NCBI GenBank assembly: GCA_024403175.1
Contig: JAKSSI010000095.1
Location: 1 to 5,721, forward strand
Length of the DNA stretch: 5,721 nt
DNA from: Clostridia bacterium
GTDB lineage: Bacteria; Bacillota_A; Clostridia; Peptostreptococcales; Anaerovoracaceae
Direction of reading: 5' to 3'
Positions 58 to 5,721 of this stretch are shown in pieces. A model generated the notes under the pieces. It ran no database searches, was not told where the DNA came from, and saw only the letters and a program-made list of their open reading frames with translations. The translations under genes and the position numbers were made by a program. Numbering within the stretch: the first letter of the stretch is position 1; every line of letters starts with the position of its first letter.

Positions 58-1350
58 CTATTTTTTCTTAATTATTGATTTTACTAACCCGCAGATTGGC
101 ACCAGTATTAGGTAGAAGGTGAAAAATCTGCAGCTGTACGGAGCCCCGATGGCAGCCATCGGAACCCCACCAGCAATCGACCACGGTATAAGAGCCGGAA
201 TTACAATGGCAGTGTCTGCAATGGCAAGGAATAGTTCTTCTTTGCTCAGGTCAAGACCACTGCAAAGCTGGTTTGCCAAAATGATGGTTAAGCTTTGGTT
301 GCAGGCAACTACACCTGTAACAATTGAAGCCACTAAAACCGATGTGAAAGCGGTCGTCTTCTTGGCAAGCTTTTCTAAGGCAACGGTTGCACCGTTTAGT
401 AGGCCTGTCTTTTTGAATATTCCCGAATATGCGGAAGAAATGCTGATTATAAGGCCAACGCGTATCATTGAAACAATGCCGCCACCGTTTATCATAGCTG
501 CCACTTGTGGGTCGGGCACGGAGAATCCGAAGATTAGGGCCTTTAGCATTTCAAGCGGAGCAACATGCTGAATGAAAAGTGCAATTGGCAGGGCTGAAAT
601 GATGCTTGCGCCCATGGCCATCTTAACATTTACCTTAAATGCTGCTAAAAGAAGTATCACGATGGCCGGGATTACAGCCATCCAGTGAAGATTGAACTCT
701 CTTGCGAAAAGTTCTCTAAGGTTTGGAATTTCACCGTTCCCAAGGAATTTAAAACCAAGCACAGCATAGATAATGCAAGACAAAATAAAAGGAATAATGG
801 TGTCTTTTACCATTGATTTTATGTTTGTAAAAATATTCGTACCCGTAAGTTCAGATGCCATAAGGGCAGATGTAGAAACAGGGGAGCAGCGGTCGCCGAA
901 ATATATGCCGGAAAGAATGGCTCCGCCTATAACTCTAATATCCATGCCCATAGATGTAGCCATTGTGGCGCAAATTACACCCATAGTGGCACCTGTGCCA
1001 AAGGCTGTGCCGGTTAGGAAAGATATAAGGCAGTTGAGCAGAAAGCTCATTAAAAGAAGTATAGATGGGCGAATTAAATTGGATGCATAGCAAACTATTA
1101 CAGGAATAGTGCCGGCGGCTCTCCAAATAGCGGTAAGCATACCTATTAAAAGGAATGCTATAAGTATAGTTTTGATGGTTTTTATGCCTTCGAGGGCTGT
1201 TTTAGACAGTTCAGCCCAGCTAAATCCCTTGCGTTTTCCGTAAAGTAAAAACAGCACCAGGCCAAAGGCCAGTGCATAGAGGATTGAAATATCAAGGATT
1301 ACGCAAATTATTAGGGCAGCACAAAAGCCGCCAAGTGTTAAAATCTCCAT
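58..1350 (-). CDS. nhaC: NhaC-family Na+/H+ antiporter (or organic-acid/Na+ antiporter)
   Basis: This is a polytopic inner-membrane secondary transporter of 430 residues, with about ten or more hydrophobic segments spread over its whole length. Family hallmarks are visible: a glycine-rich GTAFGTGATMG (residues 114-124), FGDRCSPVSTSA (151-162, matching the FGDK-SPLS motif of NhaC proteins), a polar CNQSLTIILANQ helix (350-361) and LIPWSIAGG (387-395, the LIPW-x-x-G motif). NhaC relatives exchange Na+ for H+, or lactate/malate with Na+ and H+ (MleN), and the sequence does not decide between these. I chose the ATG at 1350. TTG at 1359 and GTG at 1353 are in-frame alternatives that would add three or one residues. 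None of these starts has a convincing Shine-Dalgarno sequence. The gene is divergent from the c-di-GMP operon, and no functional link to that operon is apparent. The symbol denotes the family only. Confidence 0.88.
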   Translation of the reverse strand: MEILTLGGFCAALIICVILDISILYALAFGLVLFLLYGKRKGFSWAELSKTALEGIKTIKTILIAFLLIGMLTAIWRAAGTIPVIVCYASNLIRPSILLLMSFLLNCLISFLTGTAFGTGATMGVICATMATSMGMDIRVIGGAILSGIYFGDRCSPVSTSALMASELTGTNIFTNIKSMVKDTIIPFILSCIIYAVLGFKFLGNGEIPNLRELFAREFNLHWMAVIPAIVILLLAAFKVNVKMAMGASIISALPIALFIQHVAPLEMLKALIFGFSVPDPQVAAMINGGGIVSMIRVGLIISISSAYSGIFKKTGLLNGATVALEKLAKKTTAFTSVLVASIVTGVVACNQSLTIILANQLCSGLDLSKEELFLAIADTAIVIPALIPWSIAGGVPMAAIGAPYSCRFFTFYLILVPICGLVKSIIKKK

Positions 1351-1359
1351 CACGAACAA

Positions 1360-1388
1360 AGTATACTACAATTCTTGCCAATTTCATA
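1360..1388 (-). promoter_or_regulatory. Possible weak promoter for the antiporter gene
   Basis: On the minus strand a TATACT hexamer (1365-1360) resembles a -10 box. Seventeen bases upstream lies TATGAA (1388-1383), which is a poor -35. If this -10 is used, transcription would begin around 1353, almost at the start codon, giving a leaderless or near-leaderless message. That would agree with the missing ribosome binding site. The assignment is weak and made from sequence alone. Confidence 0.25.
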
Positions 1389-1404
1389 CGATGTATACTA
1401 TAAT
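1375..1404 (+). promoter_or_regulatory. Promoter of the HD-GYP/PilZ/membrane-protein operon
   Basis: The -35 box TTGCCA (1375-1380, one mismatch to TTGACA) is followed after 18 bases by a perfect -10 box TATAAT (1399-1404), a good sigma-A-type promoter. Transcription would start near 1411, leaving a leader of about 38 bases before the ATG at 1449. The leader contains a strong ribosome binding site, AAGGAG (1438-1443), five bases from the start codon. The -35 box lies in the left arm of an inverted repeat described separately. Confidence 0.75.
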
Positions 1405-1448: not shown

Positions 1449-3539
1449 ATGTTATTTAAAAAGAAAAAGACCGAAGAGAAGGTCGAGGAACAACAGAATA
1501 AAATCCCTGAAGATGTAATGAATCCTGAAGTGGATTCTACAGCTGAAAAGTTTTCAGGCAGAATGGGTTCTATTTTCGGAAATATGTATCGTATGATACT
1601 TTCCGTTAATTTGAATGCAAATGCTTGTCAGATTGAATCTGGCGATAGAAATCTTTGCGGCGATGTGCTTCCTGCAAGAATGTATTATTCCGCATTTGTA
1701 GATTATCTTGCAAAACACATGCATCCAGATGATCAGGAAAGCTTTGCAAAAGACTTTGCTCCACAAGCTTTAGCCGATGCTCTTACAGCTGCAAATGGAG
1801 GTTATAGCAAAGTTTATATGCTGGCAATTACTCCTAAAAAGGATAAGAAGGCAGAGATTGTATCAAATAATGGAGAAGCTTCTAATAATGATGAAGATGG
1901 TTCTGCATTCCTTGCTTCTTTAGAAGAATTAGAAGAAGAGCTGGATGCAAGATACTATGAATTCCGTGCAGATGTTATTCCAGATAAAAACCCGGTAAAA
2001 ACCAAGTGCATCATATACATTAAAGAAGTTGCTGAAAAGCCTGTTGATTTCCATTTTACTTCAAGTAAAAAGAATCTTCCTGCCGAACTTACAGAGATTG
2101 ACTGGGCAAAGATTCGTATGGAACGTTTCTTTGAGGGCGATGGCGCAATATTCTTCGAATACAATGTTGCAGAAGATTTAATGTACATTAACGATGCCGA
2201 GCTTACTAATGTTAATACCATTAAGAATTACCTTAGGGCTATTGACGTTCGTTCAGACTGGTCCATTTTCCATTCAGATGTTAAGCGTGTTAAGAAAGCA
2301 ATTGAAGATGCTATTAACAATGTTTCTTCAACTATAGATATAAGATACAGAGCTAATGGTCTTAAGACTGCTCCATTTAGATACTTTAGATTCCACGTGG
2401 CTGCTGCCGACGATGCTGTTCCAAGCAAGTGGGTTGTGGGCGTATTAAACGATGTAGATGAAGAAGTAAAGGCTGCAAAAAGCGCAAAGGATATTGCCGA
2501 CCACGTAGATTCCCTTATGGATTCTCTCTTTACAGATATGTTTGAAATAGATCTTGAAAAGGATACCCTTGTAAAGATTGTTAGAACAGAAAACGGTTTT
2601 GAAAAGAGTGAATTTGAAGACAGCTTAAGCCAAACTCTTGCAAAGTATATTGCGAATGGTGTTATTGCACCTGAAAGTGCTTCACTTTATGAAAAGTGGC
2701 TTAAGAAAGGTCATTTAGAGCGTGCTACTTTGGTAGGTAAGTATGAGTTTGAAAGTAAACTTAAGCTTCCTGGTCATACAGAATACGGATGGTACTCTGA
2801 AACTATCACAAAACTTGAAGGTACAAGACGTTATTTAAGACTTCGCCGCGATATTTCTGATATCGCTGAAATGCGTCAGAAGCAGTCTGAAATGGCTGAA
2901 CTTTCAAGATATTCTGCATACAACGAAAAGATGCTCGATACTATGGCATCCTTGGTGGAATTCCGAAACGTAGAAACGGGTCCGCATATTTCCCATGTAA
3001 GACAGCTTACAAAGATTCTTCTTACAGACTTGGCAAATCGCAGCCCTCTTTACAATATTACTCCAAAGCAGATTGAGATTTATACAGAAGCTGCAACAAT
3101 GCACGATATCGGTAAGATTGTTGTTCCTGATGTAATTCTTAATAAGCCAGGAAAGCTTTCAGCAGACGAATATGCTGTTATAAAGAGTCATACAATAGCC
3201 GGCGCAAAGATTGTAGATAAGCTGGTTCTTCCGGGTAAGGAAGAATTAATGGCTTGCTGCAGAGATGTTGCACTGCATCATCATGAAAGATTTGATGGCT
3301 CCGGATATCCTGACGGTCTTGTTGGCGACGCCAATAGTATAGGCGTTCAGGCTGTTGGTTTGGCCGATGTTTACGACGCTATGATTTCCGTACGTTGCTA
3401 CAAGGAAGGTATGGATTCATCGGATGCGGTTCAGTCTATCCTTTCAGGCGAATGCGGATCTTTCAATCCAAAGCTTCTTGAAAGCTTCAAGTACTGCCAG
3501 GATAAAATGTTCGAATTATACGAAAATTTAAGCGAATAG
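1449..3539 (+). CDS. PAS-like sensor with C-terminal HD-GYP c-di-GMP phosphodiesterase
   Basis: This 696-residue soluble protein has no membrane segment or signal peptide. The C-terminal HD-GYP domain (about residues 495-690) hydrolyses cyclic di-GMP in known family members. Expected metal and catalytic residues are visible: E509-TGPH513, the HD pair H552-D553 with K556 (MHDIGK), H581, H611-H612-E613, the GYP signature at 619-621 (DGSGYP), and D640 in ADVYDA. The set looks complete, so activity is likely. The motif usually reading R-P-Y is R649-C650-Y651 here. Upstream are three PAS-like regions, recognised only loosely. The first is about 40-196, with an HPDD signature at 92-95 and an acidic low-complexity insert at about 131-166. 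The others are about 225-340 and 350-470. The N-terminus is Lys-rich (MLFKKKK). It is the first gene of the operon, with AAGGAG five bases before ATG. The ligand of the sensory part is unknown. Confidence 0.9.
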   Translation: MLFKKKKTEEKVEEQQNKIPEDVMNPEVDSTAEKFSGRMGSIFGNMYRMILSVNLNANACQIESGDRNLCGDVLPARMYYSAFVDYLAKHMHPDDQESFAKDFAPQALADALTAANGGYSKVYMLAITPKKDKKAEIVSNNGEASNNDEDGSAFLASLEELEEELDARYYEFRADVIPDKNPVKTKCIIYIKEVAEKPVDFHFTSSKKNLPAELTEIDWAKIRMERFFEGDGAIFFEYNVAEDLMYINDAELTNVNTIKNYLRAIDVRSDWSIFHSDVKRVKKAIEDAINNVSSTIDIRYRANGLKTAPFRYFRFHVAAADDAVPSKWVVGVLNDVDEEVKAAKSAKDIADHVDSLMDSLFTDMFEIDLEKDTLVKIVRTENGFEKSEFEDSLSQTLAKYIANGVIAPESASLYEKWLKKGHLERATLVGKYEFESKLKLPGHTEYGWYSETITKLEGTRRYLRLRRDISDIAEMRQKQSEMAELSRYSAYNEKMLDTMASLVEFRNVETGPHISHVRQLTKILLTDLANRSPLYNITPKQIEIYTEAATMHDIGKIVVPDVILNKPGKLSADEYAVIKSHTIAGAKIVDKLVLPGKEELMACCRDVALHHHERFDGSGYPDGLVGDANSIGVQAVGLADVYDAMISVRCYKEGMDSSDAVQSILSGECGSFNPKLLESFKYCQDKMFELYENLSE

Positions 3540-3546
3540 GTGAAAT

Positions 3547-4215
3547 ATGCAAGTTATTAATCCGGGTACGAAATTGCACCTTGGTATTTCAACAGATGTT
3601 GGTGCCAATACAAATTTCGACCTCATTTCTACATATAACGAAACAATAGATGATTCTGCTTTTCTAATTTCAGTACCTTTAAAAGATGGTAAGCCTTTTG
3701 ACATAGATGAAAACACAAAGCTGATTTTCAAATATTTCGTTGGCGACGAAGCCATGATTATTGCCGCATACCGCGACGATATCGTAAAGAAAGGTATTAG
3801 AACATATTGGAAGATGCGCAGAGTGTCTGAGCAAAGACAGTTCTTCCACCGTGTTGATGAACGTTTTAAAATAGCTCTCCACTGCGATTACTGGCTTGAA
3901 ACATGGCCTGAAAAAGATGGAAGGATTCCTCACGAAGAATCCCTTACCTTAGACGTTTCTTCCGGTGGTGTGGCTACATTTATGGCACTTCACTTTGAAG
4001 TAGGCGAACTTTGCAAGTTCCTTCTTCCGAAGGTTGGAAATTCTCCAGAAGGCGCTGAAATCGAAGCTGTTGCAGCAGTCTGCTGGCAAAGAGAAGCTCC
4101 TAAGGGAAGCCCATACAAAAATCTTTGCGGTTTACAGTTTAGATTCGCAAATGATGCTGAAAAAAATGTGATGGTCCAGTATATGGCAAATTTACAGAAA
4201 GTGTATAAACTCTAA
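3547..4215 (+). CDS. YcgR-like PilZ-domain c-di-GMP receptor
   Basis: This 222-residue soluble protein has the two-part layout of YcgR/YpfA-type flagellar-brake proteins: an N-terminal beta-rich region (about 1-92), then a PilZ domain (about 94-218). PilZ signatures are EQRQFFHRVDERF (95-107), corresponding to the arginine c-di-GMP switch, and LDVSSGG (135-141), which fits the D-x-S-x-x-G motif (D136, S138, G141). Aligned with the usual QRR-x-FFRVD pattern, the first arginine of RxxxR falls on Q98, although R97 and R102 are present, so affinity may be altered. The family binds c-di-GMP and regulates motility or exopolysaccharide machinery. Seven bases separate it from the phosphodiesterase gene. 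Its ribosome binding site AGGTGA (3538-3543) overlaps the preceding TAG stop, implying tight co-expression. Its output partner is unknown, but the coupled downstream membrane protein is a candidate. Confidence 0.85.
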   Translation: MQVINPGTKLHLGISTDVGANTNFDLISTYNETIDDSAFLISVPLKDGKPFDIDENTKLIFKYFVGDEAMIIAAYRDDIVKKGIRTYWKMRRVSEQRQFFHRVDERFKIALHCDYWLETWPEKDGRIPHEESLTLDVSSGGVATFMALHFEVGELCKFLLPKVGNSPEGAEIEAVAAVCWQREAPKGSPYKNLCGLQFRFANDAEKNVMVQYMANLQKVYKL

Positions 4216-5144
4216 TGGCACTATTTAAAAAAGATAACAAGGATAAAAAAGGAGACGTTGTCCGCGTTGACGCACTCAACCAAATAGACGACGATGATAT
4301 CGATATTGATGATATCATATCGTCCTATTTGCCTATGCGAAGAACAAGGCTTCTCGGTAAGAGTCTTTTAAGATTAGACCGCACCCGCCTTGCTCTTTTG
4401 CTTGCTATTCTTATAGTTTTAATCCTGTTTATAATGTCTTTTTTCCAGGAAAAGATGGGTAACTTTACTATAAACCTGGACAGACTTGAACTTTATAGAA
4501 AGGGCGTAGCCATTGCGGCAGATGAAGACTTTACAGAGCCAACTGCTAGACTTACAGCGGCTCCGGTAGAAAACGCTACAAACATTTCGGGCTTAGATTT
4601 GCCAAACAATTTGGAAGATATTGATGGCGACCACAATGGTATTAACTATGTGGCATATACATACTACCTTAGAAATGCCGGAAAAGAAGACGTTGGATAC
4701 ATTGCAGATCTTGTGCTCGAACAATCATCTAAGAACGCAGAAGATGCTGTAAGAGTTGCCGTATGGCACAACGGCGAAAAGAAGGTATACGCAAAGCTTG
4801 CCGCAGATGGAAATCCAGAGCCAGGCACCGAACCTTTCGTATCTAACAAAATCGTATGCGAATTTACAGAAGAAGAGTTCCTTGTTGGAAATGTAGATAA
4901 GTTTACTGTAGTAATCTGGATGGAAGGCGACGACCCAGAATGCGTAGACAAGATAGTTGGCGGAAGCGTTCAGTTCTCCATGAGAGTAGCTTCTTACAAC
5001 GATGAGGATTCAACACTCTTCCAGAAGTATGTTCGAGATCTTATTGATACAATCACAGGCAATAAGCCTATTTCTGCAGCCGGAAACGATGCTCCGGATT
5101 TAACTTATGATAATGTAACTTGGGAGACAAGACGAAATCAGTAA
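4215..5144 (+). CDS. Single-pass membrane protein with acidic cytoplasmic tail and TasA-like outer domain
   Basis: I do not recognise this 309-residue protein as a named family. It begins with a Lys-rich MALFKKDNKDKK, then a very acidic stretch (DDDDIDIDD, 25-33), then a basic segment (R42-R58). One strong membrane helix follows (about 59-77, LALLLAILIVLILFIMSFF). The positive-inside rule predicts the N-terminus in the cytoplasm and about 230 residues outside. The outer part looks beta-rich. FTINLDR (84-90) just after the membrane and IWMEGDDPECVDKIVGGSVQF (234-254) with a following FSM resemble late strands of TasA/camelysin (SipW-type) surface proteins, but this is impression, not proof. 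C215 and C243 could pair. Its ATG overlaps the PilZ stop (TAATG) and no good Shine-Dalgarno is seen, so translation is probably coupled. The context suggests a membrane or surface output of c-di-GMP signalling. Confidence 0.75.
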   Translation: MALFKKDNKDKKGDVVRVDALNQIDDDDIDIDDIISSYLPMRRTRLLGKSLLRLDRTRLALLLAILIVLILFIMSFFQEKMGNFTINLDRLELYRKGVAIAADEDFTEPTARLTAAPVENATNISGLDLPNNLEDIDGDHNGINYVAYTYYLRNAGKEDVGYIADLVLEQSSKNAEDAVRVAVWHNGEKKVYAKLAADGNPEPGTEPFVSNKIVCEFTEEEFLVGNVDKFTVVIWMEGDDPECVDKIVGGSVQFSMRVASYNDEDSTLFQKYVRDLIDTITGNKPISAAGNDAPDLTYDNVTWETRRNQ

Positions 5145-5168
5145 CATAATTGTAACGTTATATATGTA

Positions 5169-5206
5169 AAAAACCGTTGATTAGCCTTGACAAATCAACG
5201 GTTTTT
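5169..5206 (+). terminator. Rho-independent terminator of the three-gene operon
   Basis: CCGTTGATT (5174-5182) pairs perfectly with AATCAACGG (5193-5201) around a 10-base loop. Flanking A5169-5173 and T5202-5206 extend the stem and supply the T-tract. It lies 24 bases after the stop of the membrane-protein gene. The A-tract on the left could let it act in both directions. Its loop contains the -35 box of the next promoter. Confidence 0.88.
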
Positions 5207-5215
5207 GCATAAAAT
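5187..5215 (+). promoter_or_regulatory. Promoter of the riboswitch-controlled gene, overlapping the terminator
   Basis: A perfect TTGACA (5187-5192) and TAAAAT (5210-5215, one mismatch to TATAAT) are separated by exactly 17 bases. The predicted transcription start is about 5222, some 25 bases before the first conserved bases of the aptamer. The -35 box is inside the loop of the preceding terminator hairpin, and the spacer is the hairpin's right arm plus its T-tract. Confidence 0.8.
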
Positions 5216-5240
5216 TACCTTACTTAGTTTATCAACTATG

Positions 5241-5311
5241 GAGAAAGGCAAAGCTGCCGCGAGGTGGTGACGCAAAGCTATAGGGACTGCAAGTGCAGTT
5301 AGCCAGTTGCC
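5241..5311 (+). promoter_or_regulatory. Cyclic di-GMP-I (GEMM-I) riboswitch aptamer
   Basis: The GEMM-I signature elements occur in the right order. GGCAA (5247-5251) pairs with TTGCC (5307-5311) as P1. A hairpin with CTGCC (5254-5258) and GGTGG (5263-5267) is closed by a GCGA GNRA tetraloop (5259-5262). The highly conserved GACGCAAAGC follows (5269-5278). The last hairpin has outer pairs GCTA (5277-5280) with TAGC (5300-5303) and inner pairs ACTGC (5286-5290) with GCAGT (5295-5299). Between the two strands on the 5' side is TAGGG, the likely tetraloop receptor. Class I aptamers bind c-di-GMP directly in the nascent transcript. It precedes a secreted-protein gene on the same strand, and its P1 3' strand is shared with the following terminator. 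Confidence 0.92.
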
Positions 5312-5347
5312 AATTCCGAGGATTCTTTCCTAGATTGGCATTTTTTT
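5308..5347 (+). terminator. Riboswitch expression platform: first terminator
   Basis: TGCCAAT (5308-5314) pairs perfectly with ATTGGCA (5334-5340). An inner AGGA/TCCT stem (5319-5322 with 5328-5331) extends the hairpin, and seven T residues (5341-5347) follow directly. The first four bases of the left arm are also the P1 3' strand of the aptamer, so the closed ligand-bound aptamer and this terminator should exclude each other. That arrangement predicts readthrough when c-di-GMP is bound (an ON switch), by inference from pairing alone. Confidence 0.82.
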
Positions 5348-5351
5348 ATTT

Positions 5352-5398
5352 GATGCCATTCTTGGAATGTTCCAGGTAATAGGCATCTTTTGTATTTT
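5352..5398 (+). terminator. Second terminator-like hairpin in the leader
   Basis: GATGCC (5352-5357) pairs with GGCATC (5382-5387). Inside, ATT (5358-5360) can pair with AAT (5378-5380) with single bulges, and CTTGGA (5361-5366) pairs with TCCAGG (5371-5376, one G-U) around an ATGT loop. TTTTGTATTTT (5388-5398) follows, ending just before the ribosome binding site. It looks like a second intrinsic terminator, though its T-run is interrupted. Alternatively it is a spacer hairpin protecting the 5' end of the coding region. Confidence 0.6.
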
Positions 5399-5407
5399 AG
5401 AGGAAAA

Positions 5408-5721
5408 ATGTTTAAGAAGTTAGTTTCAACAATTTTAATTATGGCAATACTTCTTCAGTGCAGCGCACTGACTGTTTTTGCTGACTCCGAAATTGTTGAA
5501 ATTTTAGACATTGAAGCCGCTACAGTTGCCACAAGCACAGATCTTCCAGCACCTGTAGAAAAGACAGAAGATGTTAAGGAACCTGAAGAAAAGATTGAAA
5601 CTCCAACAGAAGAACCGGCTGAAGAACCGGCTGAAGCTCCTGAAGAAGAGAAGACTGAGGCTCCAATTGAAACTCCTGTAGAAGAAAAGGCTGAAGTTCC
5701 AACTGAAGAAAAGACTGAAAC
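5408..5721 (+). CDS. Secreted or surface protein with acidic Pro/Glu/Thr repeats (N-terminal part)
   Basis: The reading frame starts at an ATG preceded by AGAGG (5399-5403) and runs off the window after 104 codons with no stop. Residues 1-25 form a classical Sec signal peptide: basic FKK, a hydrophobic core, and VFA before D26 as the predicted signal peptidase I site. C18 is not in a lipobox, because Q precedes it. From about residue 48 the chain becomes low-complexity, built of Glu, Pro, Thr, Lys and Ala with recurring P-x-E-E-K-x-E units (for example PVEEKAE at 90-96 and PTEEKTE at 98-104). Such stretches are typical of stalks or wall-spanning parts of Gram-positive surface proteins. No anchor or functional domain is in view, so the function is unknown. 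The upstream c-di-GMP riboswitch suggests a role in adhesion, biofilm or surface remodelling. Confidence 0.85.
   Translation, partial: MFKKLVSTILIMAILLQCSALTVFADSEIVEILDIEAATVATSTDLPAPVEKTEDVKEPEEKIETPTEEPAEEPAEAPEEEKTEAPIETPVEEKAEVPTEEKTE
5609..5632 (+). repeat. Perfect tandem 12-base repeat inside the surface-protein gene
   Basis: GAAGAACCGGCT occurs twice head to tail (5609-5620 and 5621-5632), encoding E-E-P-A twice. It lies in a wider field of imperfect repeats of about 24 bases built around GAAGAAAAG-x-CTGAA (from about 5672 to the window end). Exact copies next to degenerate ones suggest recent slippage or unequal recombination in the repeat region. Confidence 0.7.

What the first reader, a model, noticed from the sequence alone, without database searches (positions are those of the whole stretch)
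1449..5721. Compact c-di-GMP locus: degrading enzyme, protein receptor, membrane protein and RNA sensor together
An HD-GYP phosphodiesterase, a PilZ receptor and a membrane protein form one operon. The next transcription unit starts with a c-di-GMP-I riboswitch and encodes a secreted repeat protein. A turnover enzyme, a protein sensor and an RNA sensor of the same messenger within about 4 kb suggest a local signalling module controlling the cell surface. The individual parts are known; this combination, with the unrecognised membrane protein, may be undescribed.
Basis: partly seen in the sequence, partly recalled or inferred. Interest (0 to 1): 0.75.

Follow-up and report, generated by a model that had tools for sequence, protein, structure and literature searches.

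The report
c-di-GMP locus linked to surface fibres
This stretch of bacterial DNA carries an enzyme, a protein sensor and an RNA sensor for the same signal molecule beside a little-known membrane protein, and comparison with relatives suggests that the block helps control hair-like surface fibres.

Summary
Observation confirmed: HD-GYP (1449-3539), PilZ (3547-4215), a 309-aa single-pass membrane protein ("TM309", 4215-5144), then a c-di-GMP-I riboswitch (5237-5314, 59.2 bits) ahead of a secreted E/P/T-rich ORF cut by the window end. In 80 TM309 loci, PilZ is adjacent in 46 of 46 testable close relatives. HD-GYP (10 of 50) and a nearby riboswitch (8 of 50) are patchy but go together: 6 of 10 HD-GYP loci against 1 of 32 others; the tree shows too few independent events to call this coupling. 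A SipW-type (TasA-like) secreted protein follows TM309 in 30 of 35 close and 21 of 21 distant loci, often with SipW peptidases and an AAA/DUF2357 pair resembling "CoCoPALM" (named in one eLife paper and its preprint). Most riboswitches in these loci precede SipW-type genes. Best reading: a c-di-GMP control block for SipW-dependent surface fibres, in which PilZ acts on the TM309 tail and the riboswitch turns on a surface protein when c-di-GMP is high. Fibre function, the PilZ-TM309 contact and switch direction are inferred; the window itself holds no SipW or fibre gene.

The parts
1375..1404 (+). sigma-70-like promoter (TTGCCA-18-TATAAT), 44 bases before the HD-GYP start
   Evidence: consensus scan; not evidence of function by itself
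1449..3539 (+). HD-GYP phosphodiesterase, 696 aa, no hydrophobic TM window, HDIGK and HHERFDGSGYP motifs intact
3547..4215 (+). PilZ protein, 222 aa, weak YcgR N-domain plus PilZ; RxxxR (RVDER) and DxSxxG (DVSSGG) present
   Evidence: motifs read
4215..5144 (+). TM309: cytosolic tail (about 1-52), TM helix (about 56-80), beta-sandwich ectodomain (84-260), C-terminal helix and RRNQ tail
   Evidence: orientation inferred
5170..5206 (+). terminator-like inverted repeat with T-run closing the first unit; the next promoter's -35 lies in its loop
   Evidence: read by eye; promoter
5187..5215 (+). sigma-70-like promoter (TTGACA-17-TAAAAT) ahead of the riboswitch
5237..5314 (+). c-di-GMP-I riboswitch aptamer
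   Evidence: 59.2 bits
5308..5347 (+). terminator hairpin plus U-run; its 5' arm (UGCCAAUU) reuses the 3' end of the aptamer
5352..5387 (+). second hairpin, -16.6 kcal/mol, followed by UUUUGUAUUUU
5408..5721 (+). secreted E/P/T-rich protein, N-terminus only; hydrophobic signal-like start, not of SipW type by eye

Best explanation
A c-di-GMP control block for a SipW-dependent, TasA-like surface fibre system of Clostridia. The HD-GYP enzyme lowers c-di-GMP. When c-di-GMP is high, the PilZ protein binds it and engages the conserved cytosolic tail of TM309, a single-pass protein whose outer domain is a fibre-subunit-like beta-sandwich, and so switches anchoring or assembly of fibre subunits at the membrane. 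At the same time the riboswitch lets transcription pass its terminator (ON at high c-di-GMP), so a secreted surface protein is made: in the window an E/P/T-rich protein, in the two nearest relatives a SipW-type subunit. Shown: gene content, motifs, neighbourhood conservation, aptamer-terminator overlap. Inferred: enzyme activity and binding, PilZ-TM309 contact, fibre function, ON direction, and that the window's organism also carries the SipW genes.
Confidence: 0.5

Rival explanations
1. Ordinary clustering of c-di-GMP genes: HD-GYP and PilZ act on global c-di-GMP and flagella (YcgR-like), TM309 is a separate envelope protein, and the riboswitch gene is an unrelated neighbour.
For: PilZ has a weak YcgR N-domain match; separate promoter-like and terminator-like sites; HD-GYP and riboswitch patchy.
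Against: PilZ-TM309 adjacency in 46 of 46 loci; in distant TM309s without PilZ an EAL-like or HD-GYP protein takes the adjacent place in 17 of 28.
Confidence: 0.25
2. TM309 is a surface receptor or signal relay (outside-in), passing extracellular state to the PilZ and HD-GYP proteins, rather than an effector of c-di-GMP.
For: Single TM with conserved tail and ectodomain; an enzyme lies just upstream in this clade.
Against: Most close relatives lack the enzyme (HD-GYP in 10 of 50), while SipW-type genes stay nearby (30 of 35).
Confidence: 0.15
3. The riboswitch is an OFF switch (a rival to one step only, compatible with the main reading).
For: Class-I switches of both directions are known (recalled); a second hairpin and alternative pairings have nearly equal energy.
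Against: The terminator arm directly reuses the aptamer's 3' end in 17 of 22 cases, far above shuffles, with no antiterminator needed in between.
Confidence: 0.25

Closest known systems
TasA/SipW fibres of Bacillus (recalled) and sipW-bsaABCRSD of Clostridium perfringens (PMC7395162; passages read)
   Same: SipW-type peptidase plus SipW-type beta-rich secreted proteins, found near the TM309 family in relatives
   Different: The passages seen describe two-component and temperature control. A term search of that text found c-di-GMP once and riboswitch once, both in the reference list; TM309, PilZ and a riboswitch do not appear in the passages seen
CoCoPALM systems (Bell et al. 2024, PMC11090510; passages read)
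   Same: AAA protein with N-terminal TM, DUF2357 partner and signal peptidase family proteins: AAA in 19 of 50 close and 18 of 30 distant loci, DUF2357 in 20 of 50 and 18 of 30. The DUF2357 partner looks coiled-coil in the one member read by eye
   Different: The CoCoPALM passage mentions no c-di-GMP, PilZ, riboswitch or TM309-like protein, and TasA and SipW do not occur in the text. The window itself shows no CoCoPALM gene
c-di-GMP riboswitches upstream of surface protein genes in Clostridioides difficile and Bacillus thuringiensis cap (PMC6200980, PMC4933901; search listing with abstract openings)
   Same: Riboswitch control of surface proteins
   Different: Here, in relatives, it mostly precedes SipW-type genes next to a PilZ-TM309 pair
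YcgR-type PilZ receptors (recalled)
   Same: RxxxR and DxSxxG motifs, weak YcgR N-domain
   Different: The constant gene neighbour is TM309

Membership tests
HD-GYP phosphodiesterase | HD and GYP-region metal-site motifs | tested here: met
   Aligned with 4r8z; HD[IV]GK and HHExxDGxGYP in 10 of 10 relatives' proteins
HD-GYP phosphodiesterase | c-di-GMP hydrolysis | not testable with these tools
   needs assay
PilZ c-di-GMP receptor | PilZ domain with RxxxR and (D/N)xSxxG | tested here: met
   over cut-off; motifs in the window protein and in 47 of 49 PilZ ORFs of L001-L050; the 2 misses are broken or cut ORFs in L033 and L048
PilZ c-di-GMP receptor | c-di-GMP binding | not testable with these tools
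   needs assay
c-di-GMP-I riboswitch | score over Rfam gathering threshold | tested here: met
   59.2 bits against 35
TasA-like SipW-dependent fibre protein (for TM309) | N-terminal SipW-type signal (hydrophobic stretch ending YAWF-like) as in the SipW-type neighbours | tested here: not met
   TM309 has a tail of about 50 residues and an internal TM helix without that ending; it is called TasA-like in the ectodomain only
TasA-like SipW-dependent fibre protein (for TM309) | TasA-type beta-sandwich | tested here: inconclusive
CoCoPALM (for the relatives' loci) | McrB-like AAA with N-terminal TM, DUF2357 partner, signal peptidase | tested here: inconclusive
   Walker A and N-terminal hydrophobic segment in 36 of 36 AAA proteins, NxD-like motif in 21 of 36 by a rough pattern; DUF2357 on one protein 39.2 bits over 23.3, AAA_5 19.5 bits under its cut-off of 22. 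FtsB homology not tested; nothing visible in the window, which ends too soon

The most novel reading that the evidence does not exclude
TM309 is the founding family of a membrane platform that turns cytosolic c-di-GMP, read by PilZ (or by an EAL-like or HD-GYP protein in distant relatives), into assembly of TasA-type fibres made by a SipW/CoCoPALM machine: a c-di-GMP-gated pilus system of Clostridia, with riboswitches timing subunit supply.
Probability: 0.3. Interest if true: 0.8.

Novelty: new variant of a known kind. Interest (0 to 1): 0.6.

Why it matters
It gives an unannotated, strongly conserved protein family (1708 matching proteins) a testable role, links c-di-GMP to SipW/TasA-like surface proteins in Clostridia, and offers a handle on CoCoPALM, which the one paper found names and leaves for a later publication. 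In my searches of the held library I saw no paper describing this link. I saw listings with titles and abstract openings, plus passages of two papers; some searches listed only the best 20, 15 and 10 of 33, 815 and 129 papers, and most subscription papers are not held.

Tried and rejected
No genome is held for the window. TM309 profile by sequence against solved structures: only a designed repeat protein and weak sarcoglycan matches. PilZ by sequence against solved structures: no hit. TM309 on plasmids: none. Considered and dropped: that the four parts form one fixed module. That HD-GYP/riboswitch co-occurrence proves coupling: too few independent events. That c-di-GMP-I riboswitches always serve SipW genes: of 20 riboswitch regions that I picked from 12 genomes, 7 precede SipW-type genes (L109-L115, all in G009, G033, G037, G046; by profile, L114 weakly at 19.4 bits), while the other 13 (G001, six in G015, and one each in G018, G019, G027, G028, G039, G043) gave no SipW-type match. 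The Ysr206 hit (18.2 bits against 124) is chance. Three weak riboswitch matches (E 0.007, 0.011 and 0.038) were dropped from all counts, leaving 22; 12 of those 22 built the model, so 10 are new finds. One search confirmed 162 loci but kept the best 80; 82 were not seen. The forced-helix calculation pairs GGCA with UGCC, a helix that the Rfam model does not contain, so only the overlap with the aptamer's 3' end is used. The SipW-type and 'EAL-like' groups come from single-linkage clustering; the latter mixes EAL and HD-GYP proteins: of 19 adjacent ones, 0 have a canonical EAL motif by my pattern and 7 have HHE. L010 has an HD-GYP match downstream of TM309, not counted as an upstream HD-GYP. 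The structure lists rank other folds as high as TasA.

Full report
What is in the window. An NhaC-like antiporter on the minus strand (58-1359), then HD-GYP, PilZ and TM309 in close head-to-tail order, a terminator-like repeat, a promoter-like site, a c-di-GMP-I aptamer and the start of a secreted protein (repeat read by eye). The aptamer scores 59.2 bits against a gathering score of 35. The HD-GYP domain aligns with solved phosphodiesterase 4r8z with its motifs kept. The PilZ protein keeps RxxxR and DxSxxG (read).

The unknown protein. TM309 has no Pfam or NCBIfam match, but 1708 proteins match it (own entry included); the 120 listed are 58-100% identical. The 37-row alignment has invariant residues in the tail, around the TM helix and across the ectodomain. 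AlphaFold2 gives pLDDT 84.0 and pTM 0.72, with a helix at 56-80 and strands from 84 to 260.

Neighbourhoods. Of 162 confirmed loci in species genomes the best 80 were kept: 50 close (L001-L050) and 30 distant (L051-L080). PilZ is adjacent in 46 of 46 close loci with at least 1 kb upstream visible and in 0 of 28 distant ones; there an EAL-like or HD-GYP protein is adjacent in 17 of 28. HD-GYP of the window's kind is in 10 of 50 close loci (L001, L002, L006, L009, L014, L018, L021, L025, L033, L044). A SipW-type protein lies within 2.5 kb downstream in 30 of 35 close and 21 of 21 distant loci. SipW peptidase is found in 23 of 50 and 20 of 30, AAA in 19 of 50 and 18 of 30, DUF2357 in 20 of 50 and 18 of 30; many contigs are short, so these are lower bounds. 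One SipW example passes TIGR02228 (82.6 bits against 51.85).

Is the SipW link chance? A profile of SipW-type proteins finds 2 to 7 matches per genome in 20 genomes, 86 in all; 85 lie on a single contig per genome (the exception is in G005), so these genes are few and clustered. For G015 and G022 that contig is also the one with TM309. The profile was built partly from these genomes, so the top matches are no surprise; their small number and clustering are the point.

Spread. In the family of G001, 7 of 296 genomes match TM309; 6 of these have PilZ beside it and the seventh (L087) looks like a SipW-type protein. In the family of G015, 14 of 200 match a TM309 profile, one of them weakly (G354, E 1.9e-4) and one over a part only (G351). 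The system is sparse.

CoCoPALM. The AAA and DUF2357 genes with signal peptidases resemble the CoCoPALM systems named by Bell et al. (PMC11090510, passages read), who say these will be explored in a separate publication. AAA proteins in these loci have Walker A and an N-terminal hydrophobic segment in 36 of 36. The term search listed ten items; by title only that paper and its preprint concern this sense.

Riboswitches. A covariance model built from 12 of them found 22 strong matches in the window and 80 loci. Close loci with one within about 3.2 kb downstream: L001, L002, L005, L006, L014, L018, L025, L037. Among 42 loci with the upstream side visible, 6 of 10 HD-GYP loci have one against 1 of 32 others (Fisher p 2.5e-4); counting L005 and L010, which carry an EAL-type gene, as PDE loci gives 7 of 12 against 0 of 30 (p 2.9e-5). 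The quick tree, which groups the window with L001 and L002 (support 95), needs only 4 changes for each trait. It gives 3 independent pairs on supported branches (4 on all), of which one or two go the same way and none the other way (p 0.5 to 1), so this is not evidence of coupling beyond shared ancestry. Leaving 6 tandem partners out, 15 units in relatives are followed by a SipW-type gene (11), an EAL-like/TM309 operon (3) or a secreted protein of another type (1). In the two nearest relatives, tandem aptamers (two in L001, three in L002) precede a SipW-type gene, whereas the window's gene is of another type.

Switch direction. The terminator's 5' arm contains the aptamer's conserved 3' end in the window and in 16 of 21 riboswitches of relatives (13 by the script's flag and 3 whose arm begins 5 bases before the aptamer end; exceptions L001 twice, L006, the first of L014, L051). 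With downstream bases shuffled the count is 1.2 on average and 4 at most in 20 rounds. In the window the same script picked the second hairpin as the more stable one. Bound aptamer and terminator should exclude each other, which predicts ON at high c-di-GMP. That the 3' segment contacts the ligand in solved class-I aptamers is recalled. Energies of alternatives are close, so direction is inferred.

PilZ-TM309 contact. The tail motif S.Y.[PA].R[RK] is in 42 of 46 PilZ-adjacent TM309s and in none of 17 with an adjacent EAL-like or HD-GYP protein. This fits a PilZ docking site, but follows the close/distant split and may be ancestry.

Verdict. The constant core is PilZ-TM309, usually beside SipW-type proteins. 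The HD-GYP and the riboswitch are variable additions in the window's clade and a few others.

Noticed in passing
window 58-1359 (-): NhaC-like Na+/H+ antiporter (Pfam Na_H_antiporter 103.7 bits; TIGR00931 184 bits, below its 370 cut-off), divergent from the operon; no NhaC match in the 80 TM309 loci by tblastn.
   Followed up: partly
window 5352-5387: Second terminator-like hairpin after the first terminator; GGCA/UGCC segments recur five times from the aptamer to here (5247, 5308, 5337, 5354, 5382) and could pair in a relay.
   Followed up: partly
window 5170-5215: The -35 box of the downstream promoter-like site lies in the loop of the upstream unit's terminator-like repeat.
   Followed up: no
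L025:5431-5514 and L025:11093-11167, 18518-18594: One locus holds a c-di-GMP-II and two c-di-GMP-I riboswitches around HD-GYP, PilZ and TM309.
   Followed up: no
L001, L002, L037, L056, L058: Tandem c-di-GMP-I aptamers, two or three in a row.
   Followed up: no
L014:11948 onward: A second, partial TM309-like stretch downstream of the full one.
   Followed up: no
L061, L073, L074, L075, L079: A conserved family of about 330 aa upstream of the AAA gene; one member has no Pfam match. It looks like a degenerate EAL domain to my eye, untested.
   Followed up: partly
L108 (G001:C130): Riboswitch ahead of a gene that resembles a polyphosphate-polymerase (VTC) domain, by recall.
   Followed up: no
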